From: Theocolax elegans
Lineage: Eukaryota > Arthropoda > Insecta > Hymenoptera > Cerocephalidae
Length of the DNA: 64,000 nucleotides
NCBI GenBank assembly: GCA_026168455.1
Contig: CM047430.1
Coordinates: 24,012,735 to 24,076,734, forward strand
Direction of reading: 5' to 3'
Shown here: positions 37,104-64,000 of the stretch, piece by piece
Layout: every line of letters begins with the position of its first letter
Position numbering within the stretch: the first letter of the stretch is position 1
The notes under the pieces: model-generated
What the model saw: only the letters and a program-made list of their open reading frames with translations
Databases searched by the model: none
Told to the model about the DNA's origin: nothing
Translations under genes and position numbers: made by a program

Positions 37104-37865
37104 TGTCGCGTCATGATAGACGCAACGTACACACATGCGCCTACACATACACACACACATATGCACACACACATACGCACACACGTGCGCACGCATTTCA
37201 TACGTAAATTAGGACGTCCTCGTCAAAGACAGGAACCGCCTTGAAAAATTCTAGCCAATAACTTAATTAGGTCACGCATGACAAAGAATAAATTAATTAA
37301 GTAAATGTACAATATTTGATTGGTCAAGAGGAACCAAAACTCCACCCCAAACCCTTGATATAAATAGGGATGTCGCACCGGGGTATGTGCTCTTGCTCTT
37401 TAGTCTTTTCTCAAGTAAGGTAAACTCCTGTATCCAAAACTTAACGCGAAATAAAGCAAGAAATCGAAAGTCATTGTTCAGTATCTTTAAACCTTCAAAT
37501 ACTAGTCATTTTCCTATTCCCTTTAAAATCCCAATTAGTCTATACCGCATTTCTATTGTAAGGAAGTCTTTGCATCGAGGATCAACGAGAGCGAGAAAGA
37601 CAGCTGAGCAGTTGCAGCCACCGGTCAACCGTAGATCTCCCGCCCGATAAGGTTGGTTGTTTTCCTTTCCTCGCCTTCACTCATTGTTGCACCTCGGGCT
37701 TACCCATGCACGTAAATTTTGGAAGGGTTTATGACCTGTGCTATACCGAGGAGAATTGCCACCCATCCTTGACGATATACGCGTACTAAAACGGGGAACT
37801 TCTATTTTTAATTTAAATTCAGTCCATTTAATTTTTCTACGTTACGTCTACCCTAGGACGTAACA
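37104..37865 (+). repeat. 5' LTR
   Basis: Starts TGTCGCGTCATGATAGACG and ends CGTAACA, the usual TG...CA ends. It contains an interrupted CA microsatellite (37,130-37,195), a TATA box TATAAATA (37,359-37,366) and a polyadenylation signal AATAAAG near 37,449, giving a plausible U3-R-U5 order. The same start recurs at 63,815. Confidence 0.9.
37359..37366 (+). promoter_or_regulatory. LTR TATA box
   Basis: TATAAATA followed by GGGATGTCGCACC; transcription would start about 25-30 bp downstream, near 37,390. Confidence 0.7.
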
Positions 37866-37867
37866 GG

Positions 37868-37880
37868 TGGGGGCTCGTCC
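37868..37880 (+). other. primer binding site, tRNA-Pro type
   Basis: TGGGGGCTCGTCC, two bases after the LTR end, is complementary to the 3' end of tRNA-Pro. It is the same class of primer site used by several vertebrate gammaretroviruses. Confidence 0.75.
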
Positions 37881-39529
37881 TAAAAATTAAAGAAGGATTA
37901 GAGCAATTGTCTTCCTTATTAGCACAGATCATGGGTACCAATGAAAAAGAGAATTCTCGAAATAAAGACGCGGCTTCAATTTTGCTTAAGCAGGCGCTTA
38001 AAATAAATCCAGATTTTTGTGTTGAAAATCCGGACAAATCTTTAGCTAGTTTGTTAAAATTTTTTAAAGATAGGCATGATAGCGGGATACATTTGTCAGA
38101 TGAAGCGGTAGGCCTCGATGAAAATATACCTATAATAATTGACTTGTTAAAGGAATTCGTAGACAAAAAAGATATAATAGAATTTTGCGAAGATAAGTAT
38201 CTAATTGAAGCTTTAGGCGATTTTATAGAAAAAAGAGTAAATCCAAAATTAATAATCGATTATATTATCGGAAACTTAATAGCAAAAACAAAAGTAGAAG
38301 TAAATGGGATAGGTTTTAAACCCGAACTAACAGACGATAACACAACCTATTTTTCGGCAGAAAATGCAACAATTAAAAATGCAAAAACATCAGAACAACC
38401 AATGAAACCTGAAATTGTTAAACGAGATAATAATGTCAGATTTACTACAAGCACACCAATTTTACCAAATAACTGTAATAATATTAATTTAGTATCGGAG
38501 AGATTGCCAAGAGTAAATTCGTATTTAACAAACTCAACCTTAGGACAAGTGAGGACCCTTTCTATAAAAGACGCACTTGAATTAATACCAAAATATAATG
38601 GGGTAAATATTCCATTGAGTCAATTTGTTGACGGATGTAGGGAAGCTTGCAACATAATACATGACCAATATGAACCGGACCTTGCGAAATTAATTAAAAT
38701 GAGATTATATGGAGAAGCATTGAAGAGTGCAGCAAAAAAAAGTTTTGAATCGATTAAAGATATTGCAAATTTTTTTTATAGTATTTTTGGGTCTGCGAAA
38801 TCTTATCATCAATTACACGGTGAATTAGCTAATGTAAAACAGAAAAGGGAAGAAAGTGTCGTAGTTTTTTCAAATAGGGTTAGATCCATCGGTCAAGAAA
38901 TCACTGAAGCAGCTCGAAGAGAAAAAAGATTAACTAATAATTTCAATCGATCTTTAGAAAATGATTTAGTAAAATTTTTTATTCGCGGTTTACATTGGGT
39001 AATAAAAGCACGAATGGGGCAAGCGTGTAAATTGGATGAAGCTACTGCAGAAGCTATAGAAATCGGAAGAGATTTTGCATGCTATGAAGTAGAAGAGTTA
39101 AATGAAACAATTAAAGTCATAACAGAAAATAAAAATCCTATACAAAGAGTCCATTTTACCGAGACAAAATATACCGATAAATGCCAACTTTGCGGGAGAC
39201 AGGGCCACCTGGCACCGAAATGCTGGCATTTAGAAAAAATGAGACAACCCCAAGCCAGGGAAAGACGGCCTACGAATGACTGGGCGGAGTCTCGAGAGTC
39301 ACGCAGACCGCAACAATGGCCAGGTGAAAAACGGACTAATGAATTTAAGCAGCAAGAAAATCAATATGTTCGTCGCCAAAATGCAACCTTCCCAAAACAA
39401 AATTATACAAATACAGAAAGGATATGCCGATACTGCAAAAAAGAGGGCCATATTATAGAAGAATGTAGAAAACGGGAATTTAATAATCGAAATCGAGAGA
39501 ACCGATCGGAAAAAGATCCCAAACGAAAT

Positions 39530-39905
39530 CAAAATCAAATTCCAATTCAAAATCGAAATCTAAATCAAAATGCAAGTTTAAATGAAATTCAATATCAAAT
39601 TCTAAATCAAAATTCAAATTCAAAAGAAATTCAAAATCAAATTCTAAATCAAAATTCAAATTCAAATGAAAGTCAAAATCAAATTCTAAATTAAAATTCA
39701 AATTCAAATGAAAGTCAAAATCAAATTCTAAATCAAAATTCAAATTCAAATGAAATTCAAAATCAAATTCTAAATCAAAATGCAAATTCAAATGAAATTC
39801 AAAATCAAAATCATAATTCAAGTTCAAATGGAATTCAAAATCAAATTCTAAATCAAAATTCAAGTTCAAATGAAATTCAAAATCAAATTCAAAATCTAAA
39901 ATCGA
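39530..39905 (+). repeat. in-frame 42 bp tandem repeat in gag (Asn/Gln-rich)
   Basis: About nine diverged units containing AATTCAAATTCAAATGAAAT and TCAAAATCAAATTCTAAATC. The period of 42 is a multiple of three, so units encode 14-residue N/Q/S/L-rich blocks, prion-like in composition. The minus-strand 155-codon frame over it is a shadow. Confidence 0.85.
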
Positions 39906-40631
39906 GTTCAAAGGTAACTCAATATCGAAGTCTAAATGAAATTCCAAGCCTAAATCAAGTCTTACTTACGAAAGCAGTATGTAAGCCTAATGTATGTAAA
40001 TTAATCGAACAAGAAAACAAAGAGACAAGTCAAGAAATTAAAATCATTAAGAAATTAGAAACAAATACCAAATCGAACCCAGTAATAAGGGAGAACGATG
40101 AAGAATACTTTAATCATGAAATTAATAAAGAAAGATTGCAAAAGCACTCCTCAAATAAAAAAAATAATCTCTTAAATGAACTCGAAAGTGATGAGGCAAC
40201 TAATAACTCAAGCGCGCACCCAAATCCAAGAAACGAGAACGAAATAAGTAATGAAAAATATTCTAATTTTGAGATAAAGAGAAAAGATATGGTAGGTCTC
40301 GATAATAATACAGAAAATAAAAAGGCATTAGCACAAAATGAAAATGTAAACGCAAACGAATTCAATGAAGAAAGGTTGTTAATTTCGACACGCATGTTAC
40401 AAAAAATTCTAGAGGAAGGTTTAATGAATAATGGAATTCTGTGGAATAATAACCAAGACATGGAAATGTTAATAAGTAATCTACTAATGGAAATAAAGTA
40501 TCATGACATCTCAACAAATAACTCAAAGGAATTAAGAGAAAATCTAAATAAATTAGGAAATTATGTAAAACTACATGCCTTTGGGGGAGAATCTCATAAA
40601 AATGTTATTAAAGATACATTGGAGGGTTTAC

Positions 40632-40635
40632 TTAA
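40632..40635. repeat. TTAA target-site duplication, left
   Basis: TTAA immediately before the transposon end GGGGTCAAGCC; its partner is at 43,452-43,455. Confidence 0.85.
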
Positions 40636-43451
40636 GGGGTCAAGCCTGGGTTAAATGTTTTCAATAAATAAATAATTATTATTAGAATAATTTTTTTTTT
40701 TTAATTCTACTCACATATTAATTTTTTTTACATAATATATATGTATTATACATTATATTTATCAATATAAAAAATGTTTATAATGCATTTTTAATCCTAG
40801 TTATTAAACTCATAATGATATTAAAAAATTGATTAATTTTTGCAGTTGCCGTAGGATATTGAAGCATTGAATGCATCTTTTAATGTCTAATAAGGCTTAA
40901 AATGTTCATGGAATATATGTTTACAGACTTATGTTTTTCCTTTTCTGAAAACAAATTAATAACAATGTATTAAATATAAAAGTTGATAATAACAAAAAAA
41001 ATAGTGAATGTTATGTACGTATACGTACATAACATTCACCTAAAACTTATCTTTTTGAAAATTGGGCAACATAAGTCCGTAGAAATATATATTTTAAAAG
41101 TTTCCCCAAAATTTCAAAGTGATTCATCAACCTGGCTCTGAAATATCCTGCGGCAAGTAAGCTAAAATCATTAAAAAACCATTAATGAGATAAATGCATT
41201 TAAAGTTTCACTTATTAGATTTAAAGTTTTACTTATTTTATAATTCTAATACCATATTCTTCAGGTATCGTACAATTTGTATGTGTAATCTTAATACTAT
41301 GTATATTTAATAGGTTTATAGTGACTTTTTTCTGGTTTTATTAATATAATACTCAGTATATTTTTTTAATATACATGTATTATCTAAAATAACAGAAAGT
41401 CAACTTCAAGAATCAGTTTCTTTATAAAAAGAGGAATAAAATTTTTTAAAACTAAAAGAATACTTAGCTATTATTGAATATTAATACATGATTATTTTAT
41501 ATATAGTTTATGACTATTTTATATAATAATATTTATACTATGATTATTATATTATATTATATGATTATAATTTTTATTATAAGCATTAAATTTAATTAGA
41601 AGTATGTAAAGAATGCAGTAAAAACAAATACTGTTTGACAGTTGTGTACAATATCTCTTTCTCTCTCTCTCACATGACAAGTCTTCCATAAAATTATTGA
41701 TTTTTCGGATAGCCTTGTCACGTGATAGAGAAAGAGAGAGGCATATATAGTGTTACAGCTGCTAATGGAAGTGTACACCAGCCACACGTTTGTAGTTCAG
41801 TTTTAAGCATTATAATATCAAGTAGAATTATATATTATATATATTATATTATATAATATCTAAATAAAATAAGTAAAAAAAACTAGTGGTTTATAAAACT
41901 GCATGAACAAATTATATCAGATAAGTATTTGCATAACCTTAAATTTATATTTTGTTTATGTCAAGAAATTGATTCTTTGTTTCTCCATTTCAGCATAACC
42001 AATGTGTCAACACTTAGATATACAATATTTGCAGAATACAGATAAAATTATAGTAGTGTTTTGTTATGCTCAGTGTATTTGTGCTTAGTGCGATATTATG
42101 TGGTTGAAGTTATTTTATGTGTACTTATTTGTGAAAGTGTTTTAAACCTCCAATATAATTAGTATATTTCATGCCGTAAAGTACCACTCTCTATATTCTT
42201 TTGTTTCTTCTTCTGGTCGCAATTCACATGCTCTGCAAAAATATTGCTTTGGAGGAACGTCAATTACTTTTTCATTCTCATGCAGTATCAACACCTTGAA
42301 GAGAATTGAATCCTCGCTTCCTCCAAGAACCATCACCTGATACACTTATATGGCAATTCTGACTTGTTGAATCATATACTTGCTCGACAGTTGCTTTCAT
42401 AGACTGTTTACCAACTTCTTTACAAACATTTTTTATCTCTGTATTAATAATGTCATAATTACTGTGAGAAACTCGACTCGTCAAATCCATATTTCCACAA
42501 AAAGTAACTAAACCAGCATGCCCATGACCAAGAGTTCTCATTGTGTACACTAACGTCTATTTATTTCATGAGCGTTACTTTTTTTCCAACTTTTCTACTT
42601 GAATCAATAACAAATACCTTAAAACAGTTTGTACATGTTATTGTTATTTTACTTCATAAAACCTCTCACATCAACTTCAGAAAATTTAACTGTACCATGA
42701 CAATTCTGACAAACTAAAAATTCTTCTAATGTTGGGAAAAGTAGTGATATATCAATAATTCTATTTTCTGTGCTACTTTCTTCAATGGTATCAGTTTTTA
42801 ACTTTTTACTTGATCTGGATCAATGTTGATGGAAGTGCATCGTAGTTGGTTCTTACTGATGTTGATAATTTTTTTATGAGCAGATGTACCAGGTATTCTG
42901 TTACTTGAGTCTGGCATTTTTTTTACTGCTCTTTTTTTGTATAAATTTATAATTAATTTCTTAAAACTAATAAAATTTAAAGTTAAAAATATACTTTTAA
43001 TTTAAAATCCACTGAGTATTTACTAAAATAATGTAAATACTTTATCAATGCAGACAATATTTACTTCAAATAGAACTGTACGTATTTGTGCAGTATATAA
43101 AAGTAAAAGGAATCATTTATTTATTAACTATTAAATTTGAATCGTATGGTAAAGTAGATTTCTACTTTACCAAACTCTACGCTTGATAGTTGCTTCGTTT
43201 AATATACTTGTATGTAAACGTCGAAAACCTCGCAATTATTATTTTAGTTAAATTAAAATAAATGTCTTTTTTTGCAAAAATAATTTTAGAGAAATAATGT
43301 CTATTGATGCTTACTTTATTTCAATTATAACTTGCGAAAAAATTTTTTGTTTTTTTTCAAATTTTGGGATAATGTTTTATGTAAGAAATACTTTAAAAAA
43401 AGTTAATAAAAAAAAATCGATTTTTTGAGCAGTTAACCCAGGCTTGACCCC
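40636..43451. mobile_element. TTAA-target DNA transposon nested in gag-pol
   Basis: A 2816 bp insertion with 19 bp perfect inverted ends: GGGGTCAAGCCTGGGTTAA at 40,636-40,654 and its complement at 43,433-43,451. It is flanked by TTAA. The interior is very AT-rich and carries a decayed minus-strand transposase. The TTAA target and a DGSW..KRGF-type transposase suggest a Kolobok- or arthropod Mutator-like family; I cannot choose between them by eye. Insertion plus duplication totals 2820 bp, a multiple of three. Confidence 0.8.
42175..42917 (-). pseudogene. decayed transposase (DGSW..KRGF family)
   Basis: It starts at the minus-strand ATG at 42,917 (MPDSSNRIPGTS). Next come SLLFPTLEEFLVCQNCHGTV, a Cys-pair segment near 42,720, then the frame 42,550-42,278 with RTLGHGHAGLVTFCGNMD and SVSGDGSWRKRGFNSL, and a continuation to about 42,180 with a KQYFCRACELR segment. 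The D of DGSW is the likely first catalytic Asp of a DDE transposase. Several frame changes are present and the C-terminal half is absent from the element. Sited inside TTAA-flanked inverted ends, it is presumably the element's own enzyme. Confidence 0.65.
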
Positions 43452-43455
43452 TTAA
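43452..43455. repeat. TTAA target-site duplication, right
   Basis: TTAA just after the right inverted end at 43,451. Confidence 0.85.
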
Positions 43456-44488
43456 ATTAAGAATTAATTTAAAAGGAAAAGGCGGAAAGAAACTAAAAGG
43501 TAGTCATAAAGTTTATCGCTTAGCATGTGTCATACCAAAAGGGAGAGCGGAAAAGGTAAAATCATTACTACGACTTGACCATTTGGCTGCTGATGAAAGA
43601 GAAGAAATAGAAAAATTAATTGAGAAATATACCGACATCTTTTACCTTCCGAGTGAAAAATTAACAGCAACGCATATTTTAAAACTAACAATTCCAACAA
43701 CGGATGATGTACCAATAACTTCAAAACAATACCGATTACCTCCGGTACATAAAGAAGAAATAGCAAGACAAGTGCAAGACTTATTAAAAGACGGCATTAT
43801 CGAACCATCTACCTCATCGTACTCAAGCCCTTGTTTTCTAGTTCCTAAGAAAGAGGACATACAAGGACGCAAGCAATACAGAATGGTGATCGACTATCGC
43901 AAATTAAATGCGAAAACTTTAGACGACCAATTTCCGCTACCGAATATAACTGAAATAATAGACCAATTGGGCGGATCAAAAAAATTCTCAACTTTTGATC
44001 TTAAGGCTTCGTATCATCAAATAGAAATTGACAAACGAGACCGTCACAAAACCGCGTTTATTACAAACGGAGATTTGTACCATTTTAACCGAGGAAGCTT
44101 TGGACTACGAACAATGCCGGCTAAATTCTCAAGAGCACTTTCAACTGCACTCGCTGGACTTATCAATAAAGAACTTTGCTTTATTGATGATATTATATGT
44201 TATTCGGAGACTCTACAAGAGCATATTAAAAGATTAGAGAATTTATTTATTAGATTGCGAAAAGCGGTTTTAAAATTACAACCAGAGAAATGTGAATTTT
44301 TTAAAAAAACAGTTACATATTTAGGTCATGTTATTAGTGCAGAAGGAATTAAACCAGATTCGCGGAAAACTGAAGCTGTACAAAAATTACCACGCCCTCA
44401 AAATGCTAAAAATATCAAGCAATTTTTGGGTTTAGCGGGCTACTATAGAAGATTTATTTATCAATTTTCAAAAATTGCAAACTTTTAA
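43456..44488 (+). pseudogene. pol: pol: reverse transcriptase
   Basis: Copies the element RNA into DNA. Counting from the codon at 43,583: RMVIDYRKLN (100-109), FSTFDLKASYHQI (135-147), FNRGSFGLRTMPAKF (168-182) and the catalytic FIDDII (200-205), where Tyr of the usual YIDD is Phe; then YLGHVIS and FLGLAGYYRRFI near the end. The wording is Gypsy/Ty3-type. Upstream codons from 43,456 are in the same frame as gag across the DNA-transposon insertion. A one-base loss at about 44,483 stops the frame; RNase H continues in the next one. Confidence 0.85.
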
Positions 44489-45747
44489 CGGATTTATTAA
44501 AAAAGGACGTTCAATTTAAATGGTCAGAAGAAACAGAAAAGGCATTTGAGACATTACGCATTAGTTTATGCGAAAAACCAGTATTAATTTTTCCAAATTT
44601 CGAAATTACTTTCAATCTAACGACCGACGCTTCGGGATATGCAATTGCTGGAGTCTTAAGTCAAGGTGAGATAGGGAAAGATCAACCCGTTGCATACGTC
44701 TCTCGAGTTCTTTCGGATGTTAAAAAACGTTGGGACACGTTTAACAAAGAAGGACTAGCAATAATATTTTGCATTAAGCATTTCCGACCGTATTTATTTG
44801 GACGAAAATTTTATCTTATAACAGATCATAAACCACTGGTATGGTTACAAACGCACAAGGACCCGAACTCACGAGTTACGCGATGGCGTCTTATGCTCGC
44901 GGAGTACGATTTCGAAATTAAATACAGACCGGATCGTTTAAATGTAGCAGACGCACTGTCTAGAAACCCCATAGACAAGGTCCTAGTTATTACGAGAAGC
45001 AAGGCAATAGCGGCAGGTGATGAGCCCGAGTCTAGCCTAGTTGAACCACCGCGGGGTATGACCACGAGAGCGAAGGCGGGTCGCCAGGTAGGCCAGCGAT
45101 ATTTAGACGCGATAGAGGCTCTACGCCCGCAAAGGGGAAGAAAAAACGAGAGGCGAGCGAACGAACAATCACCGGACCGTGGAGAAGGAACGCACGACGA
45201 TACGGAGGTGGAAACTTTCGAGCCGGAACCCCTCGTTCACTCGGAAAATGTGCGATTACGCTTACACAAAGATCTTGACCATGTTAATGAATCATTACTT
45301 GAAAACGATCCGCAATTCAGTCCTGATCAAATAAACGAAGAGACGTCGATCTATGAAGAACAATTTAATCAAATTAACGATAAACAAGTAATTATAACAT
45401 GCAGAGAAAAATTATTTATGCGTAAGGACAATTATATGTATTTTGTTACTACAACAGGAGAACCATGCGACGATGGGGCTTCGCAATTAAAACTACAGAA
45501 TAAATTACCAAGATTCAAGGAAATGCAGGTTGGAATACCGGTTTTGATAAATGTAAATACAAAAATTCATATAGCATTACCGATACGAACAGAATCGTTA
45601 ATCGGGCTAAGTGGAATTGATAATAACCTAAATTTATTATGCGAAAATCTATATTTAACTTTAGATACAATACAGATAAAATCAATAAGTATAGCGAAAA
45701 CCGATAGAATTGAAAATTTAGAGTGGGAATTAGTTTTAGAAAACTAA
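44489..45747 (+). pseudogene. pol: pol: RNase H and linker to integrase
   Basis: The segment from 44,489 carries the Gypsy RNase H: LTTDASGYAIAGVLSQ (first Asp), NKEGLAIIFCIKHFRPYL (Glu), ITDHKPLVWL (Asp) and RPDRLNVADALSR. It is followed by a long charged linker of about 230 residues (45,000-45,740) without recognised domains. A one-base shift near 45,740 separates it from integrase, whose frame overlaps the end. Confidence 0.8.
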
Positions 45748-46663
45748 AAGGAGTTTTTAGTCAAAGCACGGTAAAATTAATTGTTTGTTTAGGTCTAATA
45801 CGATATCCGACACTAGACGATCGAATTCCGATTATAGAAGAAGCTCACTGTTTGGCTATAGGAGGACATAGAGGCGTCACAAAAACCTATAACCGTATTA
45901 AACAAAATTATAACTGGGAGAATTTAAAGATAGAGGTACAAGATTTTATAAGAAAATGTTTGAATTGCCAATTAAAGAAATTGGTTAGGGTTAAAACTAG
46001 AGCTCCAATGGTCATTACAAACGCTATGGACCGAATAAGTATGGATATTGTTGGTCCCTTATGTAAAACCAAGCGGGGAAACGAGTACATTTTAACCTTC
46101 CGAAACTTATTAACTAAATTCGCATTAGCTGAGCCTTTGGCACGAATTTCGGCCATGGATGTAGCGAATGGTTTAATAAGAAAAGTCATATGCATATTTG
46201 GCGTACCTCGAATAATCCTTACGGATCAAGGTACGAATTTCATGAGTAAATTAATGAAAAGAATAGCAAAAATATTTAGAATTAAACAAACTAAAACCAC
46301 GGCGTTCCACCCACAATCAAATGGTGGACTTGAAAGATCGCACTCAAGTCTCATTGAATACTTGAAATTTTTTGTACATAGTAATCGAACAGATTGGGAC
46401 GATTATCTGGATTTGGCTACCTTTAATTTTAACACGGGAATTAGTGAGTCTACATGGCATACGCCGTTTGAACTCGTGTTCGGCCGACTGGCACGCACAC
46501 CCTCGAACGCACCGGTCGAAACAGAAGACCTGGCGCCTACATACGATGGTTATCTTGAAGATTTAGTCAAGCGCCTAAACAGTCTAACAAAACATAGCCC
46601 AACAAAACCTTTAAAGGCAAAACTTCGAGCCAAGAAATACTACGATCGTAAGGTAACGTTTTA
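45748..46663 (+). pseudogene. pol: pol: integrase, first copy
   Basis: Integrates the cDNA. The N-terminal HHCC zinc domain is visible (EEAHCLAIGGHRG, CLNCQ). The DDE core has RISMDIVGP (first Asp), ILTDQGTNF (second Asp) and NGGLERSHSSL (Glu). A one-base deletion (ACGTTTTAAC where copy 2 has AACGTTTTAAC) ends the frame at 46,664, before the GPY/F domain. From about 46,015 this sequence is repeated tandemly downstream. Confidence 0.85.
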
Positions 46664-47786
46664 ACACTACAAATCGGTGATTACGTATGGCTGCAAAAGG
46701 GGCCAAAACCTAAGAAATTTGACGATCAATACTCGGGTCCATTTTTAGTTCTAGACGTTTCCGACAATGGGAATGTAAAAATTCAAATAAATGGAAATAA
46801 AAATAAATAGTGCACATAAATCGCTTACGCAAATCGCATATTGAAACTGAATAAGCTTGTTGGTATTTAAATTTAAGAGCATGACGAATGTAAATAAACA
46901 TACAAACGCTATGGACCGAATAAGTATGGATATTGTTGGTCCCTTATGTAAAACCAAGCGGGGAAACGAGTACATTTTAACCTTCCGAAACTTATTAACT
47001 AAATTCGCATTAGCTGAGCCTTTGGCACGAATTTCGGCCATGGATGTAGCGAATGGTTTAATAAGAAAAGTCATATGCATATTTGGCGTACCTCGAATAA
47101 TCCTTACGGATCAAGGTACGAATTTCATGAGTAAATTAATGAAAAGAATAGCAAAAATATTTAGAATTAAACAAACTAAAACCACGGCGTTCCACCCACA
47201 ATCAAATGGTGGACTTGAAAGATCGCACTCAAGTCTCATTGAATACTTGAAATTTTTTGTACATAGTAATCGAACAGATTGGGACGATTATCTGGATTTG
47301 GCTACCTTTAATTTTAACACGGGAATTAGTGAGTCTACATGGCATACGCCGTTTGAACTCGTGTTCGGCCGACTGGCACGCACACCCTCGAACGCACCGG
47401 TCGAAACAGAAGACCTGGCGCCTACATACGATGGTTATCTTGAAGATTTAGTCAAGCGCCTAAACAGTCTACAAAACATAGCCCAACAAAACCTTTTAAA
47501 GGCAAAACTTCGAGCCAAGAAATACTACGATCGTAAGGTAAACGTTTTAACACTACAAATCGGTGATTACGTATGGCTGCAAAAGGGGCCAAAACCTAAG
47601 AAATTTGACGATCAATACTCGGGTCCATTTTTAGTTCTAGACGTTTCCGACAATGGGAATGTAAAAATTCAAATAAATGGAAATAAAAATAAAATAGTGC
47701 ACATAAATCGCTTACGCAAATCGCATATTGAAACTGAATAAGCTTGTTGGTATTTAAATTTAAGAGCATGACGAATGTAAATAAAA
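46015..47786 (+). repeat. ~885 bp tandem duplication in integrase
   Basis: Units 46,015-46,899 and 46,900-47,786 share ACGCTATGGACCGAATAAG at the start and AGCATGACGAATGTAAATAAA at the end. The differences noticed are single-base homopolymer indels. Confidence 0.9.
46908..47741 (+). pseudogene. pol: pol: integrase core and C-terminus, second copy
   Basis: This copy lacks the HHCC domain because the duplication starts inside the gene, but it has the complete DDE core and reads through without shifts to the GPY/F-type C-terminus (YSGPFLVLDVSDNG, IVHINRLRKSH) and a TAA at 47,739-47,741. The first codons of the frame (46,857 on) come from the 3' flank of copy 1. It shows what the natural end of pol looks like. 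Confidence 0.85.
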
Positions 47787-47975: not shown

Positions 47976-47985
47976 TTTAATGTTG
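47976..47985 (+). promoter_or_regulatory. probable splice acceptor before env-1
   Basis: TTAATGTTGCAG directly precedes the ATG at 47,986. Envelope genes of errantiviruses are expressed from spliced subgenomic RNA, so an acceptor here is expected. Confidence 0.5.
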
Positions 47986-53837: not shown

Positions 53838-54129
53838 ATGAGCAACGACAACTGGGATATGGAAATAGAACTCGATCCGTCAGTGGGATGGATGACGGAA
53901 CGACGTGCTTTAAGAAGAACAACAGTCCTTGAGAGACGGTCAAGTACGCCGAACAACTCGTGCCCGGATAGGAATAGCCGGACACCACTACCCAGCATAC
54001 ACTGCTGATGAAAGAATAGCCAGCCAATGGTGGAATACGCAACATGTACAAGAGAGGATCTGCAATGACTTGGATCCAAATACAGTACGGTACCACAGGC
54101 AGAAGTACCGTAGTTGTCTGGAAAAGGTA
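53838..54129 (+). pseudogene. 3' Cys-rich gene, 5' part
   Basis: The ATG at 53,838 starts a polar, acidic leader (NDNWDMEIELDPSVGWMTE). A one-base shift around 53,930 moves the reading to a frame continuing through RTTRARIGIAGHHYPAY and NTQHVQERICND to the foldback insertion at 54,120-54,129, where the reading is cut. The remainder is at 63,099-63,425. I recognise no family. The peptide after 54,130 (SNRTGPV) belongs to the insertion. Confidence 0.5.
54120..54129. repeat. 10 bp target-site duplication, left
   Basis: GGAAAAGGTA, repeated at 63,089-63,098. Length fits Mutator-like (9-11 bp) better than hAT or P (8 bp). Confidence 0.75.
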
Positions 54130-54204
54130 AAAGTGTCTAACCGGACAGGACCCGTGTAACATTCCGTGTAAAAAACTCTAAAAAAGTAGAAAATGAACAC
54201 TTTT

Positions 54205-55110
54205 TTCGTAGGATTCCGTAAGACTTCCGTTATCTTCCGTAGAAGATCATCTTTCCGTAAGAATCCGTAAGACATCCGTTATCTTCCGTAGTAAATATCC
54301 TTCCAGTAAGAATCCGTAAACTTTCCGTAAGAATCGGTAGACCTTCCGTGGACTTCCGTAGATGTCCGTAGGCCTTCCGTAAGACTCCGTCGGCCTTCCG
54401 CAAGAATCCGTAGGCGTTCCGTGAGATTCCGTAGACCTTCCGTGGGGCTTCCGTTGATGTCCGTGGGGCTTCCTTAAGATTCCGTGGGCCTTTCGTAATA
54501 AACAGTAAGCTTTCCGTAAGATTCCGTAGACTTAGTGTGAGATTCCGTAGGCATCACGTGAGATTCCGTAGCCCTTCCGTAGACTTCCGTAGATATCCGT
54601 GGAGCTTCCGTAGATGACCGTATGCATTCCGTAAGAATCCGTAAGCTTTCCGTAAGACCCCGTATGCCTTCCGTGAGACTCCAAGAGCCTCCCGTAAGAA
54701 ACCGTAAGCTTTCCGTAAGAATCCGTAAGCTTTCCGTAAGACCCCGTATTCCTTCCGTGAGACTCCGTGAGCCTCCCGTAAGAAACCGTAAGCTTTCCGT
54801 AAGAATCCGTAGTACTTCCGTGGACTTCCGTAGATGTCCGTATGCCTTCCGGTGAGGCTTCCGTAAGAATCCGCGGGCCTTCCGTAAGAATCCGTAGGCG
54901 TTCCGTGAGATTCCGTAGACCTTCCGTGGGGCTTCCGTAGATGTCCGTGGGGCTTCCTTAAGATTCCGTGGGCCTCCCGTAAGAATCCGTAAGCTTTCCG
55001 TAAGAACCCGTAGGCCTTCCGTGATATTCCGTAGATGTCCGTATGCCTTCCGGTGAGGCTTCCGTAAGATTCCGTGGGTCTTCCGTAAGAAACCGTAAGC
55101 TTTCCGTAAT
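54205..55110 (-). repeat. ACGGA satellite array, left
   Basis: The core TCCGT (ACGGA on the minus strand) recurs every 10 or 11 bp, for example CTTTCCGTAAGAATCCGTAA. Apparent long reading frames on both strands (54,474-55,121; 54,622-54,855) are repeat translations. Confidence 0.9.
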
Positions 55111-55559
55111 CTCCTGGTCACCTTTTTTAAACAGTTAGACCGCTTCGATTTTCGTCATATCAGGTAAAAAAAGTAGATATTGACTGACATGAGGAAAGTT
55201 TCGGTGGTCTGATCGCATAAATCATAGCATTTTATTATTTATCAAGGCTACGCTTGCTTATTAGTCTATTTAAAGGGCAGAGCTCGTATTCTAAGAATTT
55301 GGTGATATATTTTGGCATGAGGGATAGCATCTTAACGGCTATTCATATTGCTTTAAAAAAATAAAAATTTAAATAATCGGAGTTGTTTACATGGGTGGCT
55401 CTGATGTATATCTCACGGTCTTTTTCGGAACACGTCGCTCCGGGCTCTCCGCCAAAGATTGTTTTGGAGGGATCCGTATGAGGGATGGACGTTTGGACCA
55501 GCGGCTGGTTTGATTTAAGGTAATGTATTTTGGATTTAATTCTCGCAGCCGCTTGCCTT

Positions 55560-56050
55560 CCTTCGATATACCAACATATCTTATTATAGAATTCGGGCCC
55601 GTGGAATGGTTAGATTTGAGGCTTTCGACTTCGATTTATTCTTCGCGGCCGCGCGTCTTCCTTTTATGTGTAGGCGTTATTTTATATAGACTTTGGGTCC
55701 GTGGGGTAGTTGGATTTGAGCGTTTATGTTTTAGATGTATTCGTCTCTGCCGCACGCCTTCGTTTTAATTGCAGTCGTATTTTTATATACACTTCGGGCT
55801 TGTGGGGTAGTTTTATTTAATGTTATATGTTTTGGATTTATTCCTTGCGGCTGCTCGCCTTCCTCCGATGTACCGGCGTTTATTTTATATAGACCCCGGG
55901 CCCGTGGGATAGTTGAATTTATGGATTTTGGTTTTGGATTTGTGCATCGTTATTTGTCATTATTCAAATTTTTTCCTTTTTAATCTCTTTTCATCTACGA
56001 TTATTTGCAAACATAATTTGATACGCAGTCTTGGGGTGCGTGGGGTAATT
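55560..56050 (+). repeat. ~105 bp tandem repeats, inner TIR
   Basis: Five diverged units marked by GGGYCCGTGGGGTAGTTGRA-type blocks near 55,586, 55,686, 55,796, 55,897 and 56,032; the outer ones belong to the left TIR and reappear inverted at 60,500-60,850. Confidence 0.75.
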
Positions 56051-57484
56051 GAGTTAATGTATTTTTGTTTAATATTTTATTTCGATACTGTTTGCGAGTG
56101 ATGATTTGAGGTGTTCGAACGGCGCGCGCTAGGATGGGACACTGGCTGACTCACTTCAGAGGGTATCGCCGCTCGCCGCTCGCTGTTATTGTTGTGCTCT
56201 TTGAAGTATGCAGTTGAGTGTCCCTCAGCGTTAGGAGAAAAAGATTTCACACTTGCTTCCTTCGGCAAACTTCAGATCGCGCTCACGGAGAAGAGAGAAA
56301 ACGACTAGTTTCAGGCCGAGCAAACTTGTGCAGAGAGAAAAGTAGGTTTGTTCGTTTATTCTGTCGTCTGCTGCTGCTTGTTTTTCGAATTTTCAAATGA
56401 CAGTTATGTTATATTTATATGTGTATTTATTTCATAATTCTGTAACACGCCATTTTGACGATATAGAAATACCGTATTGTGACAGTTAAAAGCGACGATG
56501 AATTCCTAGAAATTGCCTATTTGCAATCGGTAAAATCGACAGCAAATTCTGGGATTTAACAAGGATGATTTTATTTTTCAATAAATTATGTTTCGATATA
56601 GGCAAAAACTTAAAATTTCAAATATCCAAGACGTACTGACAATATTTATTAGCAAAAAATAAAGCCTAGCAATCTTTAACCCCGATGCTCACGCTCCCTC
56701 GGTTGAATTTAAAGTGTTGCTACTACAGTTAATAATGCAAATACATTTTCTATATTAAAGTAATTTGACAATCACAATATGAGAAAAAAATTTTTGTTTA
56801 CTGCCCAATCACCAATTTCAGTTTTCATATTTCTTATAATATATAAAAAAATGTGTTAAGTACAAAACGTGAATTTAAATTTGATCGCGGTTTTATCGAT
56901 ATTGTGTGCATAACATTCCGTAGTTCGAAAGAACTGTTAATTATGTCTTCAACTTTTAATTATCAACAATTAAGTACACGGTTTTATTTAACGCTGATAG
57001 TTTGTGCATGAAGCAGCTTATAGATTATACAGTGTACAAGTGTATTGGTGTGAGTTAGACATGCCACTTAACTCATCCAAAAGATATACTTTTGTCATAT
57101 CTAACCCATCAAAATTTAATCTTCCACAGTACTCAAACATAATAAAATAGCCGGCATAATTAAAATAGGCCGACCCTATAAAATCTCACGTGAGAACTCA
57201 TGAACAGTACTTCGAGGAGCTCCTCCAAGTGACGGATTTCTCCTCGAAGTGCCCAATATGTTAAAAATTTCTCCTCAAAGTGCCTGATATATATATATAA
57301 ACACCAGTATCGGTACTTATGGTGACACTTCGTGTTATCTTGGTGTTTTGAGGTTATAAAACATATGCAACGACTCAGATATAAGGGGGAGAATATTAAT
57401 TGACAGAATAATGCATAAAAAACCAATAACCCAAATATCCAATAACCCAAATACCTAAATACCCCTCACCGGTAAAAAAGCACA
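56051..57484. other. foldback element centre, no gene recognised
   Basis: A CpG-richer part at 56,100-56,350, otherwise AT-rich. Reading frames are short and without family motifs. Three related CTCCTCGAAGTG-type blocks lie at 57,205-57,285. Confidence 0.4.
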
Positions 57485-57598
57485 CTTTGACCTTATAATA
57501 TTAATGAAGGATTGAAGTTATAACCTCATTCGCGGAGGCCTCCGGCACTTCGAATGAGGTTATAACTTCAATCCTTCATTAATATTATAACGTCAAAG
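57485..57598. repeat. near-perfect hairpin, 47 bp arms
   Basis: The arm 57,493-57,532 is perfectly complementary to 57,551-57,590; one mismatch extends it to 57,485 and 57,598. The 18-base loop contains the palindrome GGAGGCCTCC. Confidence 0.9.
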
Positions 57599-59329
57599 CG
57601 GGGCTCACAAAGATAATTTTCCGATTTTTTGTGTGTCGGCATAAGTACGAATACATGGTTGAATTTTCGGTGGAATTATGCTGACGTCGGCATAATTACC
57701 CCAAAGTAAGCACAATTCCCATTTCCCGTAAGAATTTGTCGGCATAAGTACCGATTGATCAATTTATATATATATATATATATAAATTTCGGGGTTTATG
57801 GAGTCAGAGGTATATTTTAATTTTATGTGGATATATAAGTAAAAGACTATATTTTATTAATATATGTACAATATTTTTCATATATATCCGTAAGAACTCG
57901 AATTATTTAACTTTTTATAAAAATGTTGAGAGTAGTGGTTTATGGACCCAGGAAAAAATTCAACATTTAAACAAAATATCAAAAGGCGTGACAGCGACTG
58001 ACGCAAATATAAAGAGGCGCGTGAGCCATATATACAGCTAACTAGCCCCTTGGATTTTTACTTTTGTAATTGTTGAATTATTACGTTATGTATTATGTAT
58101 TATGTAAGGGAGATGCAAAATATAGAAGCTATGCTTTCGAGCCTGTGAGAAAACGCTCAACATTGTAAAAAGACTGATGTAAAAATGTCTGGACTAAATC
58201 ATTTTAAATCAGAGGCCTAAAATATGTATTGTAGCAACACTTGCATCCGGTATGCAATTAGAAATAAAGTTTTACGTAAAACCAGATCTATTAATTATAA
58301 AACAATCAAGGAACCTAATGCACTGGCGAGTAGATGCAATTAGACCTTGGATAAATGTATCCCTCGAAGTGAGAAGGATGTATATAACTGATCAGAGTCA
58401 TCCACTGTATTTGCGTACTTTTATTATAGATCGGTAGAAGAATAAATAACTTTGTAGAAATGATGTTAACTTATCAAAGATCTAACAGCGAATCATTGAT
58501 ATATTTTGCATTATATCTTATTTCATAATTAGTTTGTAACACTTATATCTAATAGAAATATGTTTTCGACGAAATTGTTCTAAAATATGCCATAAATGGG
58601 CGGAAGCCAAGACAAAAATGGGCCAAGATGTTCAAAAAATTTAATATCTTTACGAAACCAATTTTTCACACAATCTAGGCCAACCTTTCTCGCACTACCT
58701 ATCCCTGCTTACACTGAACAATCTTATTATTTTTTCGTAACTGCAGTATTGTTCATGTCGATAGTATTTTATTTTAAAAACGTTTGTAAACTCATGTGCG
58801 ATGAGTTAGTTTAGCTCTCGAACAGACTGAACGTGATAAATAGATATTTTTTTCTCTGCTTGACATTCTTCCCTTGCGAGGTGATTGCGATTTTCTAGCG
58901 AGACGTTGTCCGCTACAGTTGTTCGCTACAGCCTCGCCCGAAAGCACGTAAGAAGATTTTTCTTCTCGTGCACTCAAAGCACGTAGTTAAAAATTGTACG
59001 AACTTAATGTTAAGTAAATTAATTAAAGCAAAGGTGAACTAATTAAAAATTACTCATTAGACTATTATTAAAGTGAATGGCTGAAAGCCATAATATAACT
59101 AATTAAAACAAAGACTCAAAGAACAAGTATTGAACAGTGATAAGCAGCCTAAAGCAGTGTTTCGACTTCATCGAAAATTCACTGTCACGATTTAAAGAAG
59201 GAACTATTAATCTGCAAGTAAAGAGAGGGACATGGTTTAATTGTTAGAAACTGATTTGCACGTTTACAAGATCAATTATCTAAGTTTCGCAAAAACACAC
59301 CGTCACCGAGAAATTAAATTAAAATTTGA
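57599..59329. other. foldback element centre, AT-rich
   Basis: Contains a TA microsatellite at about 57,765-57,785 and repeated GTCGGCATAA blocks at 57,635-57,750. No gene is supported; frames such as 58,252-58,437 and 58,596-58,814 have no family motif. Confidence 0.35.
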
Positions 59330-59760
59330 CTTCCACGAAGGTTCACGGCCCCCTTTAAAAAAGGCTAGAGTTGCCCACGGGAAGAGACGGCCAGGATTTA
59401 AAGTTATTAAATTTTATTTTACACGGAATTGCACGCTTTAAATAAAAAACTTATTTTTCACGGAAAGTCACGGCCACCAGTAGAAGAATGAAACTTAACT
59501 GTTCACGGAAATGCCCGGCCACCATTTGAGAAATAGCAAATTCATTCCTTACACGGAAAAGCACGGCCACCTAATGAGCGAAGGAAACTTCATTCCTTAT
59601 GCCTTGCACATATAATTAAATCTTCACGGAAAGTCACGGCCACCATTAAAAGATGGAAATCCTGTTCTTCACGGAAAGATATGGCCAAGTTTTTTAACGA
59701 TAGTAAAGCTTTCACGGATCGACACGGTAAACGAAACAAGAATCCGAATCTCACGGAATT
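59330..59760 (+). repeat. ~55-60 bp minisatellite with TTCACGGAAAGTCACGGCCACC core
   Basis: Seven or so diverged units with CACGGAAAG then CACGGCCACC, separated by A-rich spacers. The CACGGA word is the same as in the TIR satellites. Confidence 0.75.
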
Positions 59761-60154
59761 GTTTGGTTGTGTTAGAATAAGCGGACTATTGCGTTTTGTA
59801 GTCGTACGCTTTTTGGGACGGAAAAATTGACGGAAAGTTACGTCTTGATTTACGGCGATTTCTTTGTTGTTCGTCTATGCGAACGCACGTCTTTTCACGG
59901 TCCTAGTATGCTTTTACAAAAGCCTCCACAAAAAACTTATTAATTTCGAATTAATTGGTTTTCACGGAAAATTCACGGTATTTTTTAGTTTTTTTACACG
60001 GGAGGAGTCCGTATAGACACTTTCATTTTTTTTCTCCTGAATTGATAAAGATGAGAAAGAACTTAATCCAAAAGCCTCCGATAATTCTATTTCTTTATCA
60101 TTTCGCCAGGATAATTCAATTAATTTCAATAAATCTAGTCTACCCTTTCCAATT

Positions 60155-60478
60155 GCAACGCTGCTTAAACTTCCCAAATAATAAGAAACCAATTTCTGAG
60201 TATGGGAAATCACTTTTTTAGTGTTATAACACCCCAGATAAGCTCAAAAATCAAGGTTTTAAAGCATTTCAGACATATTTACGATTTTTAAAAATTTCTC
60301 ACGTGAGATCTCTCGTGAGAAAATTTTCCGATCGCAAATATTTCTAAAAATCGAATAAACATGTCTGAAACGCTTTAAAACCTTGATATTTGAGCTTATC
60401 TGGGGGGTTGTATCACTAAAAACAGTAACTACCCATACTCAGAAATTGGTTATTATTTGGGAAGTTTAAGCAGCGTTA
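60155..60478. repeat. palindrome with ~145 bp arms at inner edge of right TIR
   Basis: AACGCTGCTTAAACTTCCCA (about 60,150) returns inverted near 60,475, and AGATAAGCTCAAAAATCAAG near 60,236 returns near 60,405. The centre is CTCACGTGAGATCTCTCGTG at about 60,299. It is probably a separate hairpin MITE. Confidence 0.8.
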
Positions 60479-60480
60479 CA

Positions 60481-63088
60481 ATAAACGCCGGTACATCGGA
60501 GGAAGGCGAGCAGCCGCAAGGAATAAATCCAATACATATAACATATTAAATAAAACTACCCCACAAGCCCAAAGTGTATATATATAAAAATACGACTGCA
60601 ATTAAAACGAAGGCGTGTGACCGAGACGAATACATCTGAAACATAAACGCTCAAATCCAACTACCCCACGGACCCAAAGTCTATATAAAAATACGCCTGC
60701 ACATAAAAGGAAGGCGCGCGGCCGCGAAGAATAAATCGAAGTCAAAAGCCTCAAATCCAACCATCCCAAGGTCCCGAATTCTATAATAAGATATGTCGGC
60801 ATATCATATTATAGGAAGGAAGGCAAGCGGCTGCGAGAACTAAATCCAAAATACATAACCTTAAATCGAACTACCCGCCGGTCCAACCGTCCATCCCTCA
60901 TACGGATCCCTTCAAAACAATCTTTGGCGGAGAGCCCGGAGCGACGTGTTCCGAAAAAGACCGTGAGATATACTTCAGAGCCACCCATGTAAAGAACCCC
61001 GATTATTTAAATTTTTATTTTTTTTAAAGAAATATGAATAGCCGTTAAGATACTATCCCTCACGCCGAAATATATCACCAAATTCTTAGAATACGACCTC
61101 TGCCCTTTAAATAGACTGATAATCAAGCTACGCTTGCTTATCAGCCTAATAAAATGCTATGCTTTATGCGATAAGACCACCGAAACTTTCCTCATGTCAG
61201 TCAATATCCACTTTTTTACCTGATATGACGAAAATCGAAGCGGTCTAACTGCTTAAAAAGGGTGATCAGGAGATTACGGAAAGCTTACGGTTTCTTACGG
61301 AAGACCCACGGAATCTTACGGAAACCTCACCGGAAGGCATACGGACATCTACGGAAGCCCCACGAAAGGTCTACGGAATCTCACGGAAAGCCTACGGGTT
61401 CTTACGGAAAGCTAACGGATTCTTACGGAAGACCCACGGAATCTTACGGAAGCCTCATCGGAAGGTATCCGGATATCTACGGAAGTCCACGGAAGGTCTA
61501 CGGATTCTTACGGAAGGCTCACGAAGTCTTACTGAAGGCATACGGTCATCTACGGAAGCTCCACGGATATCTACGGAAGTCTACGGAAGGTCTACGGAAT
61601 CTCATTGAATCTTACGGAAGCCTCACCGTAAGGCATACGGAGATCTGCGGAAGACCCACGGAAGGTCTACGGAGATCTGCGGAAGACCCACGGAAGGTCT
61701 ACGGAATCTCACGGAAGGCCTGCGGGGTCTTACGGAAACCTTACGGATTCTTGCGGAAGGCATACGGTCATCTACGGAAGCTCCACGGATATCTACGGAA
61801 GTCTACGGAAGGGCTACGGAATCTCACGTGATGCCTACGGAATCTCACACTAAGTCTACGGAATCTTACGGAAAGCTTCCTGTTTATTACGAAAGGCCCA
61901 CGGAATCTTAAGGAAGCCCCACGGACATCTACGGAAGCCCCACGGAAGGTCTTCGGAATCTCACGGAACGCCTACGGATTCTTACGGAAGGCCCGTGGAT
62001 TCTTACGGAAGCCTCACCGGAAGGCATACGGACATCTGCGGAAATCCACGGAAGTACTACGGATTCTTACGGAAAGCTTACGGTTTCTTACGGGAGGCTC
62101 ACGGAGTCTCACGGAAGGCATACGGGGTCTTACGGAAAGCTTACGGATTCTTACGGAAAGCTTACGGTTTCTTACGGGAGGCTCACGGAGTCTCACGGAA
62201 GGCATACGGACATCTACGGAAGATCCACGTGAAGGAGCACGGAATATCACGGAAGGCCTACGGGTTCTTACGGAAAGCTTACGGATTCTTACGGGAGGCC
62301 CACGGAGTCTAACGAAAGGCATACGGAGATCTGCAGAAGACCCACGGAAGGTCTACGGAATCTCACGAAAGGCCTGCGGAGTCTTACGGAAAGCTTACGG
62401 ATTCTTACGGAAAGCTTACGGATTCCTACGGAAGGCATACGGTCATCTACGGAAGCTCCACGGATATCTACGGAAGTCTACGGAAGGGCTACGGAATCTC
62501 ACGGGATGCCTACGGAATCTCACACTAAGTCTACGGAATCTTACGGAAAGCTTACTGTTTATTACGAAAGGCCCACGGAATCTTAAGGAAGCCCCACGGA
62601 AGATCTACGGAATCTCACGGAAGGTCTACGGAATCTTACGGAAAGCTTACGGTTTAGTACGCAAGACCCACGGAATCTTACGGACGGCATACGGACATCT
62701 ACGGAAGCACCACGGACATCTTCGGAAGTCCAAGTAAGTACTACGGATTCTTACGAAAAGCTTACAGTTTCTTACAGAAGGCCCACGGAGTCTCACGGAG
62801 GGCCTACGGACATCTACGGAAGCCCCACGGACATCTACGGAAGTCCACGGAAGGTCTACGGAATCTCATGGAAGTTCTACCGAGTCTTACGGAAAGCTTA
62901 CGGATTCTTACGGGAAGGGTATTTACTACGGAGGATAACGGATGTCTTACGGATTGCTACGGAAAGATGATCTTCTACGGAAGATAACGGAAGTCTTACG
63001 GAATCCTACGGAAAAAGTGTTCATTTTCTACTTTTTTCGAGTTTTTTACACGGAATGTTACACGGGACCTGTCCGGTTAGACACTTTC
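60481..63088 (-). repeat. right terminal inverted repeat of the foldback element
   Basis: Inverse of 54,130-55,888, from ACGCCGGTACATCGGAGGAA (60,485) to the terminal GGTTAGACACTTTC (63,075-63,088). Longer than the left TIR because of extra satellite units. Confidence 0.8.
61265..63020 (+). repeat. ACGGA satellite array, right
   Basis: About 1.75 kb of ACGGA-containing units alternating 11 and 10 bp, e.g. CTTACGGAAAG then CTTACGGATT. Higher-order blocks repeat within it (the segment at about 61,760-61,930 recurs near 62,430-62,600). Frames 61,262-61,831 and 61,995-62,322 are repeat translations. Confidence 0.9.
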
Positions 63089-63098
63089 GGAAAAGGTA
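63089..63098. repeat. 10 bp target-site duplication, right
   Basis: GGAAAAGGTA, partner of 54,120-54,129. Confidence 0.75.
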
Positions 63099-63425
63099 AT
63101 GGACGGATTACTGGAGCCAGGAGTAACAAACCATTAGGACAGCGATCTAAACCTAGAGGGATTATCCCTCTTGGATTACGGCAGCACGGAAGAAGTCGAA
63201 CGACCGGCTCGTTGCGTGGAATGCGGTTTGAGGGTGAAGAACACGCGGCATTATTGCCCGCAATGCGAATTCATTGGCCGATTCGACATCCCCAGATACC
63301 AAGGATTGAATTGTTGGTGCATCTGGGAATACGGAGACTTATCACTCCACGTCTGCGACTCATGCAAGGAGGAAGTATACGACCTCCTCAGAAGACAAAG
63401 AAGGATAGCTGGACAAGAGTATTAA
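63099..63425 (+). pseudogene. 3' Cys-rich gene, zinc-binding C-terminal part
   Basis: Continuation of the gene begun at 53,838; the codon phase across the 10 bp duplication agrees with the last frame of the 5' part. One TAG (63,135-63,137) interrupts it; beyond this it is open to the TAA at 63,423-63,425. The segment CVECGLRVKNTRHYCPQCEF is a Cys2-His-Cys2 zinc-binding pattern, followed by CWC and CDSC pairs. It resembles small zinc-ribbon accessory proteins in general but no family I can name. It ends about 380 bp before the polypurine tract, so it is the last gene of the retroelement. Confidence 0.6.
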
Positions 63426-63803
63426 CAAATGTATGATTTTTTCCTTTCTTTTAGCTTTTCCTTTATCATGTTTATTCTCATTTCTCTCCTTTTTCCTCTT
63501 TTAGATTTACTAGTATAAATGCACAAAATGAAAGAAAAATAAAAAAAAATATATTCATATGCATATATGTATTTATAAACAAAATATAATAATATATATA
63601 TATATACCAATTTATGTATCGATAATTGTAATATCTAGTTTTTAAGAAAAAAAAAAAAATAAATAAATAATAAACAAACAAATAAACAAAAAAAAACAAC
63701 AGTAAAAAAAAACAACAAACAACAAAAAAAAACAAACAACCACCAAAATAACAAAACAAGACAACAAATGTGTGGATGTTTACGCCTGGCGTTAAACTTC
63801 TCT
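63426..63803 (+). other. A-rich 3' untranslated region of the retroelement
   Basis: AT microsatellite at 63,593-63,605, then about 130 bp of A-rich AAACAAACAA-type sequence. Minus-strand frames (63,422-63,907) are low-complexity shadows. Confidence 0.6.
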
Positions 63804-63814
63804 AAGGGGAGAGG
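63804..63814 (+). other. polypurine tract
   Basis: AAGGGGAGAGG directly abuts the 3' LTR start; this is the expected plus-strand primer for reverse transcription. Confidence 0.85.
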
Positions 63815-64000
63815 TGTCGCGTCATGATAGACGCAACGTACACACATGCGCCTACACATACACACACACATATGCACACACACATACGCACACACGTGCG
63901 CACACATTTCATACGTAAATTAGGATGTCCTCGTCAAAGACAGGAACCGCCTTGAAAAATTCTAGCCAATAACTTAATTAGGTCACGCATGACAAAGAAT
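63815..64000 (+). repeat. 3' LTR, first 186 bp
   Basis: Matches 37,104-37,289 with two substitutions seen (GCACGCATTT against GCACACATTT, and GGACGTCC against GGATGTCC). The rest lies past the window end. Confidence 0.95.

What the first reader, a model, noticed from the sequence alone, without database searches (positions are those of the whole stretch)
37104..64000. A giant LTR retroelement carrying two unrelated envelope genes and extra small genes
Paired LTRs, primer site and polypurine tract bound a single-orientation set of genes: gag-pol, a chuvirus-like glycoprotein, a Gag-domain ORF, a Cys-rich ORF, an F-type envelope, and a second Cys-rich gene. Gypsy-class elements normally carry one env and few accessories. 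Two fusion proteins of different ancestry plus accessory ORFs would make this a complex, retrovirus-like system, conceivably with broadened cell tropism or one glycoprotein supporting the other. The unity of the element is inferred; two elements merged by recombination are possible.
Basis: partly seen in the sequence, partly recalled or inferred. Interest (0 to 1): 0.92.

Follow-up and report, generated by a model that had tools for sequence, protein, structure and literature searches.

The report
Insect retroelement with two envelope genes
A repeated virus-like jumping element in an insect genome carries two unrelated virus-type surface proteins and three small extra genes, and several of these genes, both surface proteins among them, show signs of having been kept working while the element spread.

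Summary
Confirmed: one Ty3/Gypsy-type LTR retroelement carries gag-pro-pol, a chuvirus-type class III glycoprotein (env-1), a 131-aa ORF, a Cys-rich ORF, a baculovirus-F-type envelope (env-2) and a zinc-ribbon gene between one LTR pair. The window copy is flanked by the 4-bp duplication ATTG; 9 of 10 other LTR-paired copies have perfect, different 4-bp duplications. The block lies before the 3' LTR in 10 of 10 such copies, two with partial deletions. In the window plus 15 copies, substitutions shared by two or more are depleted of amino-acid changes in env-1 (p=0.001), env-2 (p=0.008) and the Cys-rich ORF (p=0.009), while private ones look neutral overall. So both envelopes were probably under selection together.

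Corrected: the element is not 27 kb. Two nested DNA transposons and a tandem duplication add 12.7 kb; about 15 kb remains, and the window copy is dead. The Gag kinship of the 131-aa ORF stays unproven. Env-2 lacks a furin-type RX[KR]R site and the F fusion-peptide consensus, so env-1 is the likelier fusogen and env-2 a retained F-like helper, as in Group I baculoviruses, where GP64 and F-like proteins coexist. That division of labour is inferred.

The parts
37100..37103 (.). Left copy of the 4-bp target-site duplication (ATTG); right copy lies just beyond the window, after 64576
37104..37865 (+). 5' LTR, 762 bp, TGT...ACA, with TATA-like and AATAAA motifs
37868..37880 (+). Primer-binding site TGGGGGCTCGTCC (tRNA-Pro-like; the tRNA assignment is recalled)
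   Evidence: sequence
37907..39516 (+). gag (capsid part by position, CCHC knuckle just under Pfam's cut-off); in this copy a deletion at about 39516 removes the protease region that follows in another copy
39526..39941 (+). Asn/Gln-rich tandem array (42-nt unit) between protease and RT; its length differs between the window and two other copies
40636..43451 (.). Nested DNA transposon, TTAA duplication, with a relic Mutator-type transposase; absent from the 2 other copies read across this place
43455..44488 (+). Reverse transcriptase
44449..45747 (+). RNase H and connector
45714..47741 (+). Integrase (H2C2, rve; C-terminal domain below cut-off) with an 885-nt tandem duplication (46016-46898 and 46901-47785, 0 mismatches, 4 gaps), possibly an assembly artefact
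47980..50078 (+). env-1: chuvirus-type class III fusion glycoprotein, broken in this copy; uninterrupted (650 codons or more) in 2 of 15 other stretches
50151..50546 (+). 131-aa ORF, possibly a divergent Gag capsid C-terminal domain (weak)
51008..51496 (+). Cys-rich 162-aa ORF, no Pfam family, under purifying selection
51705..53472 (+). env-2: baculovirus-F-type envelope, broken in this copy; uninterrupted (540 codons or more) in 6 of 15 other stretches; no RX[KR]R in env-2 segments of any of 15
53838..54119 (+). 5' part of the zinc-ribbon gene (a 220-aa ORF at this place in other copies)
54120..54130 (.). Left 11-bp target duplication GGAAAAGGTAA of the large nested transposon (right copy 63089-63099)
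54131..63088 (.). Nested 8.96-kb TIR DNA transposon with tandem-repeat-rich termini; absent from 10 of 10 other LTR-paired copies
63100..63425 (+). 3' part of the zinc-ribbon gene
63804..63814 (+). Polypurine tract AAGGGGAGAGG
63815..64000 (+). 3' LTR, first 186 bp; continues to 64576 outside the window

Best explanation
This is a proviral copy of a multicopy Ty3/Gypsy-type, errantivirus-like element of about 15 kb in an insect, probably a hymenopteran. It encodes two envelopes of different ancestry. Shown: one LTR pair, one integration event, a repeated gene order, and a deficit of amino-acid changes among shared substitutions in env-1, env-2 and the Cys-rich ORF. Inferred: the element makes enveloped particles that can enter new cells. 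Env-1, a class III chuvirus-type glycoprotein, does the membrane fusion. Env-2, an F-type protein without a furin-type RX[KR]R site or the fusion-peptide consensus, is a retained auxiliary surface protein, as the F-like protein sits beside class III GP64 in Group I baculoviruses. The small Cys-rich and zinc-ribbon proteins would be regulators. The window copy itself is dead and has been invaded by two DNA transposons.
For: Unity: ATTG on both sides of the window copy and perfect, different 4-bp duplications in 9 of 10 other pairs; the gene block before the 3' LTR in 10 of 10; no second LTR-like direct repeat pair inside; an A-rich strand bias of +0.12 to +0.27 in the gene pieces against -0.06 and +0.02 in the nested transposons and +0.01 in two flanks (weak support, since single 500-nt flank windows vary with SD 0.14). 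A search by env-2 gave 175 candidates, the best 40 scored, and env-1 stands at the expected place before 7 of 10 env-2 copies picked by env-2 score, one of them with only 135 nt. Selection: shared N/S against private N/S is 2/8 vs 94/33 for env-1, 4/8 vs 69/25 for env-2 and 5/9 vs 31/10 for the Cys-rich ORF. Env-1 class: Pfam Monjiviricetes_fusion 9.3e-217; Foldseek's best matches are chu-related virus glycoproteins (8.8e-20) and herpesvirus gB (2.0e-05). Env-2: Baculo_F 9.4e-11, 0 of 15 copies with RX[KR]R, best match to the F fusion-peptide consensus 2 of 6. Group I baculovirus parallel: passages of PMC4864199 and PMC4741009.
Against: No expression, particle or entry data exist here. Shared substitutions are few (46 in all) and p values are uncorrected. 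The env-1 signal comes from its N-terminal half (0/6 vs 33/20, p=0.005); the C-terminal half alone gives 2/2 vs 61/13 (p=0.17), and private changes of the N-terminal half are themselves low in N (one-sided p=0.021). In env-2 the middle piece gives p=0.018, the first p=0.07 and the last has no shared change. One of 15 stretches holds no env-1, another has lost most of it, and 3 of 10 env-2-selected copies have no env-1 at the probed 600 bases, so some copies may lack env-1. A minimal RxxR occurs in env-2 at residue 238 of the copy examined, so cleavage is not excluded. The division of labour between the envelopes rests on analogy.
Confidence: 0.6

Rival explanations
1. Two elements were joined by recombination or nested insertion at this locus only, so the two envelopes never worked in one element.
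For: A Gag-like small ORF after env-1 could mark the start of a second, pol-less element (weak similarity). Env-2 carried slightly more breaks than the rest of this copy (my count 4 of 9 in 1.78 of 9.9 kb, p=0.06).
Against: The same order lies before the 3' LTR in 10 of 10 other LTR-paired copies, with different target-site duplications in 9. No inner LTR pair.
Confidence: 0.03
2. Both envelopes are full fusogens used for different cells or receptors, giving the element a wider cell range.
For: Both genes show purifying selection and uninterrupted copies of each exist. A passage of PMC4741009 cites work in which GP64 and F use distinct or similar receptors.
Against: Env-2 has no RX[KR]R in any of 15 copies and no match to the F fusion-peptide consensus.
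Confidence: 0.2
3. Only env-1 matters; env-2 and the small ORFs are passengers carried along with the 3' half.
For: The 131-aa ORF shows no selection signal (3/2 vs 27/11, p=0.48); the zinc-ribbon gene is borderline (p=0.075).
Against: Env-2 shared changes are 4 N to 8 S against 69 to 25 private ones (p=0.008), Cys-rich ORF p=0.009, scored in the same way as env-1.
Confidence: 0.15

Closest known systems
Errantiviruses / insect endogenous retroviruses (Ty3/Gypsy with F-type env; PMC12992720 passages)
   Same: gag-pro-pol order, TG...CA LTRs, 4-bp duplications, F-type envelope downstream of pol
   Different: A second, class III envelope between pol and the F-type gene, three extra small genes, about 15 kb, env-2 without an RX[KR]R site
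Anakin, BEL/Pao elements with chuvirus glycoprotein in mosquitoes (PMC7642597 passages)
   Same: Chuvirus-type class III envelope inside an LTR element
   Different: Ty3-like reverse transcriptase here, and a second, F-type envelope plus accessory genes
Endogenous Jingchuvirales glycoproteins of ants and other Hymenoptera (PMC6540820 and PMC10084718 passages)
   Same: Same glycoprotein family; the top named hits of env-1 are ants at 47-50% identity
   Different: PMC10084718 reported Gypsy fragments beside them but no clear capture by Gypsy; here the gene lies inside LTR boundaries with target duplications
Group I alphabaculoviruses: class III GP64 plus F-like protein without furin site (PMC4864199, PMC4741009 passages)
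   Same: A class III fusogen together with an F homologue that lacks a furin-type site
   Different: DNA viruses; only an analogy of working, not kinship
Envelope-carrying gypsy elements with type III glycoproteins (PMC13172572 passages; Chary and Hayashi 2025 not held)
   Same: Figure legends seen there say that gypsy elements in mosquitoes have type III fusion glycoproteins
   Different: The passages seen mention no element with both envelope types

Membership tests
Ty3/Gypsy LTR retroelement (Metaviridae) | Order gag, protease, RT, RNase H, integrase | tested here: met
   RT, RH, IN in order in the window; protease RVP 6.1e-05, above cut-off, after gag in another copy; deleted in the window copy
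Ty3/Gypsy LTR retroelement (Metaviridae) | Ty3-type reverse transcriptase | tested here: met
   Ty3 Gag-Pol structure 3e-49; the top match, 3.6e-50, is titled only reverse transcriptase/ribonuclease H (Ty3 by recall); MLV-type RT 1.9e-14 or weaker. By nearest structure only; no tree was built
Ty3/Gypsy LTR retroelement (Metaviridae) | LTRs TG...CA with 4-6 bp target duplication, PBS and PPT | tested here: met
Errantivirus (insect ERV) | F-type envelope gene downstream of pol | tested here: met
   Baculo_F 9.4e-11 for an uninterrupted copy, above the curated cut-off
Errantivirus (insect ERV) | Furin cleavage site and fusion peptide in the F-type envelope | tested here: not met
   0 of 15 copies with RX[KR]R; consensus match 2 of 6, reached by 500 of 500 shuffles (one copy); one minimal RxxR at residue 238
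Errantivirus (insect ERV) | RT inside the errantivirus clade | not tested
   No reference set was at hand
Anakin (BEL/Pao with chuvirus env) | BEL/Pao pol | tested here: inconclusive
   RT is nearest to Ty3 among solved structures, but no BEL/Pao reference was compared; the Pfam scans of pol listed no BEL/Pao-specific family (which families are specific is recalled)
Jingchuvirales class III glycoprotein | Monjiviricetes fusion glycoprotein family and class III fold | tested here: met
Retroviral Gag capsid C-terminal domain (131-aa ORF) | Detectable sequence or fold similarity to Gag | tested here: inconclusive
   Local score 50, 3 of 500 shuffles; BLASTP nothing; no Pfam hit, no homologue, model pLDDT 41
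Complex retrovirus-like system | Accessory genes that are expressed and regulate the cycle | not testable with these tools
   Only selection on the Cys-rich ORF was shown

The most novel reading that the evidence does not exclude
An insect endogenous retrovirus lineage that spread with two co-selected envelopes: a captured class III fusogen that took over entry, beside an older F-type protein kept in a new, non-fusion role, together with its own zinc-binding regulators and possibly a free capsid-domain protein acting like the Ty1 p22 copy-number factor. It would be a snapshot of envelope replacement in a retroelement, repeating what happened in Group I baculoviruses.
Probability: 0.4. Interest if true: 0.88.

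Novelty: new variant of a known kind. Interest (0 to 1): 0.76.

Why it matters
LTR retroelements with an envelope are usually described with one (recalled), and the listings and passages seen here report none with two (searches; the most relevant recent survey, Chary and Hayashi 2025, is not held, so this is not proof of absence from print). Two unrelated envelopes, both with a selection signal, in one family make the steps of envelope capture and replacement directly testable. The family also gives a clear case of a Jingchuvirales glycoprotein inside Gypsy-type LTRs, which a 2023 survey (PMC10084718) did not find.

Tried and rejected
Rejected: a two-element merger at this locus; the 27-kb size. 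Left in doubt: the integrase duplication, since the window holds three head-to-tail 99% duplications (270-1651, 18013-19653, 46016-47785), a pattern that may come from assembly; whether other copies carry it was not tested. Led nowhere: scans of viral contigs for env-1, env-2 and RT, and of genome contigs for env-1; protein searches for env-2 (397 candidates) and the 131-aa ORF (7 candidates) with no hit; PDB sequence searches for env-2, the Cys-rich ORF and env-1 without a relevant match; a single-sequence model of the 131-aa ORF. A slippery-site scan at the gag/protease overlap found AAAAAAC only outside the usual register. My first intactness counts by motif undercounted and were replaced; a first version of the N/S script stopped with an error after six gene pieces, and one search replaced it with the same counts for those six. 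Host: env-1 hits that bear an organism name are all Hymenoptera, but the window sits on a long branch outside the well-supported groups of the tree, so the species stays open.
Full report
What is there. The window lies at C6:24012735-24076734 of a 658-Mb genome. At 37104 a 762-bp LTR begins (TGT...ACA), followed by a PBS-like TGGGGGCTCGTCC; the match to tRNA-Pro is recalled, not tested. At 63804-63814 stands a polypurine tract and at 63815 the 3' LTR, which ends at 64576 outside the window. The LTRs differ at 16 of 762 bases. ATTG flanks both ends.

What is not native. A TTAA-flanked transposon with relic Mutator-type transposase sits between gag and RT (40636-43451). An 8.96-kb transposon with long tandem-repeat-rich inverted ends and an 11-bp duplication splits the last gene (54131-63088); it is absent from 10 of 10 other LTR-paired copies, where the two gene parts adjoin. 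An 885-nt tandem duplication lies in integrase. Without these 12.7 kb the span is 14.8 kb, or 14.0 kb from LTR start to LTR start. Of the 10 other LTR pairs used, 6 stand 14.3-15.2 kb apart and 4 stand 15.9-21.1 kb apart. Two other copies have no transposon between gag and RT; a third shows a retroviral protease after gag, in the -1 frame, which the window copy has lost by deletion near 39516.

One element or two. The LTR search gave 515 candidates, of which the best 40 were scored, at 96-100%. I read about 7.2 kb before the 3' LTR of 10 LTR-paired copies. All 10 hold the block env-1, 131-aa ORF, Cys-rich ORF, env-2, zinc-ribbon gene; the first four match at 92.8-99.0% in their main pieces and the 5' part of the zinc-ribbon gene at 83.5-86.8%. 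One copy has lost most of env-1 and part of env-2, one the first third of env-2, and one has a duplicated env-1/ORF segment with the stretch ending inside env-1. Nine of the 10 have perfect, different 4-bp duplications; in the tenth the LTR taken as 5' is preceded by a polypurine tract, as in a tandem array. Of 17 further LTRs whose upstream side was read, 5 carry the block wholly or in part (one without env-1 in the stretch) and 12 have none of it there, being 5' or solo LTRs. A search by env-2 gave 175 candidates; the best 40 were scored, at 99-100%. Of the ten best-scoring places not yet read, env-1 stood at the expected 600 bases in 7, one with only 135 nt, and 3 showed none of the pieces tested. 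The A-rich strand bias is +0.12 to +0.27 in the gene pieces, +0.05 in the LTR and in one spacer, and about zero in the nested transposons. One element family with two envelopes is thus shown.

Are both envelopes used. In the window plus 15 copies (10 to 15 per gene piece), substitutions in a single copy have about the N:S ratio expected without selection (234 N, 85 S, p=0.27), whereas those shared by two or more are 15 N to 31 S (p=1.1e-07 against the private ones). By gene: env-1 2/8 vs 94/33 (p=0.001), env-2 4/8 vs 69/25 (p=0.008), Cys-rich 5/9 vs 31/10 (p=0.009), zinc-ribbon 1/4 vs 13/6 (p=0.075), 131-aa ORF 3/2 vs 27/11 (p=0.48). Against this: p values are uncorrected and shared sites few; the env-1 signal sits in its N-terminal half (0/6), whose private changes are also low in N (33/20, one-sided p=0.021), while the C-terminal half gives 2/2 vs 61/13 (p=0.17). 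Uninterrupted frames exist for env-1 in 2 and for env-2 in 6 of the 15 stretches.

How it likely works. Env-2 segments lack RX[KR]R in all 15 copies; one copy examined has a minimal RxxR at residue 238 and does not match the F fusion-peptide consensus. Passages of PMC4864199 say that F-like proteins of Group I baculoviruses lack the furin site and lost fusion while GP64 fuses, and PMC4741009 that the F remnant probably plays a role in pathogenicity. By analogy I take env-1 as the fusogen and env-2 as an auxiliary protein; this step is inferred. The 131-aa ORF resembles the capsid C-terminal part of the element's Gag only weakly; if real, a Ty1 p22-like role is conceivable (abstracts listed).

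Literature seen. Search listings. Passages: PMC7642597, PMC6540820, PMC13172572, PMC12992720, PMC11599104, PMC9963324, PMC4741009, PMC4864199, PMC6085415; PMC10084718 passages and its discussion section; PMC12440569 outline and the first two of five parts. PMC10084718 found no clear capture of these glycoproteins by Gypsy. PMC13172572 notes type III glycoproteins in mosquito gypsy elements. Chary and Hayashi 2025 could not be read, so novelty of the two-envelope arrangement is judged without it.

Noticed in passing
window 270-1651, 18013-19653, 46016-47785: Three head-to-tail duplications of 700-890 bp at 99% identity, one differing only by gaps; possible assembly artefacts.
   Followed up: partly
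window 54131-63088: 8.96-kb DNA transposon with kilobase-long inverted ends rich in 21-nt tandem repeats and an 11-bp target duplication; Mutator-like or foldback character is my inference.
   Followed up: partly
window 39526-39941 and loci L057, L058: Asn/Gln-rich tandem array inside the pol frame between protease and RT whose length differs between copies.
   Followed up: partly
window 10412-19459 (-) and 23093-27257 (+): Relics of non-LTR retrotransposons with endonuclease and reverse transcriptase domains.
   Followed up: no
window 30214-31255: 59-bp tandem array and, at 31986-33358, long imperfect palindromes.
   Followed up: no
G000 C4 near 52398946: An LTR preceded by a polypurine tract at the 5' side of another copy, suggesting a tandem LTR-internal-LTR-internal-LTR array.
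   Followed up: no
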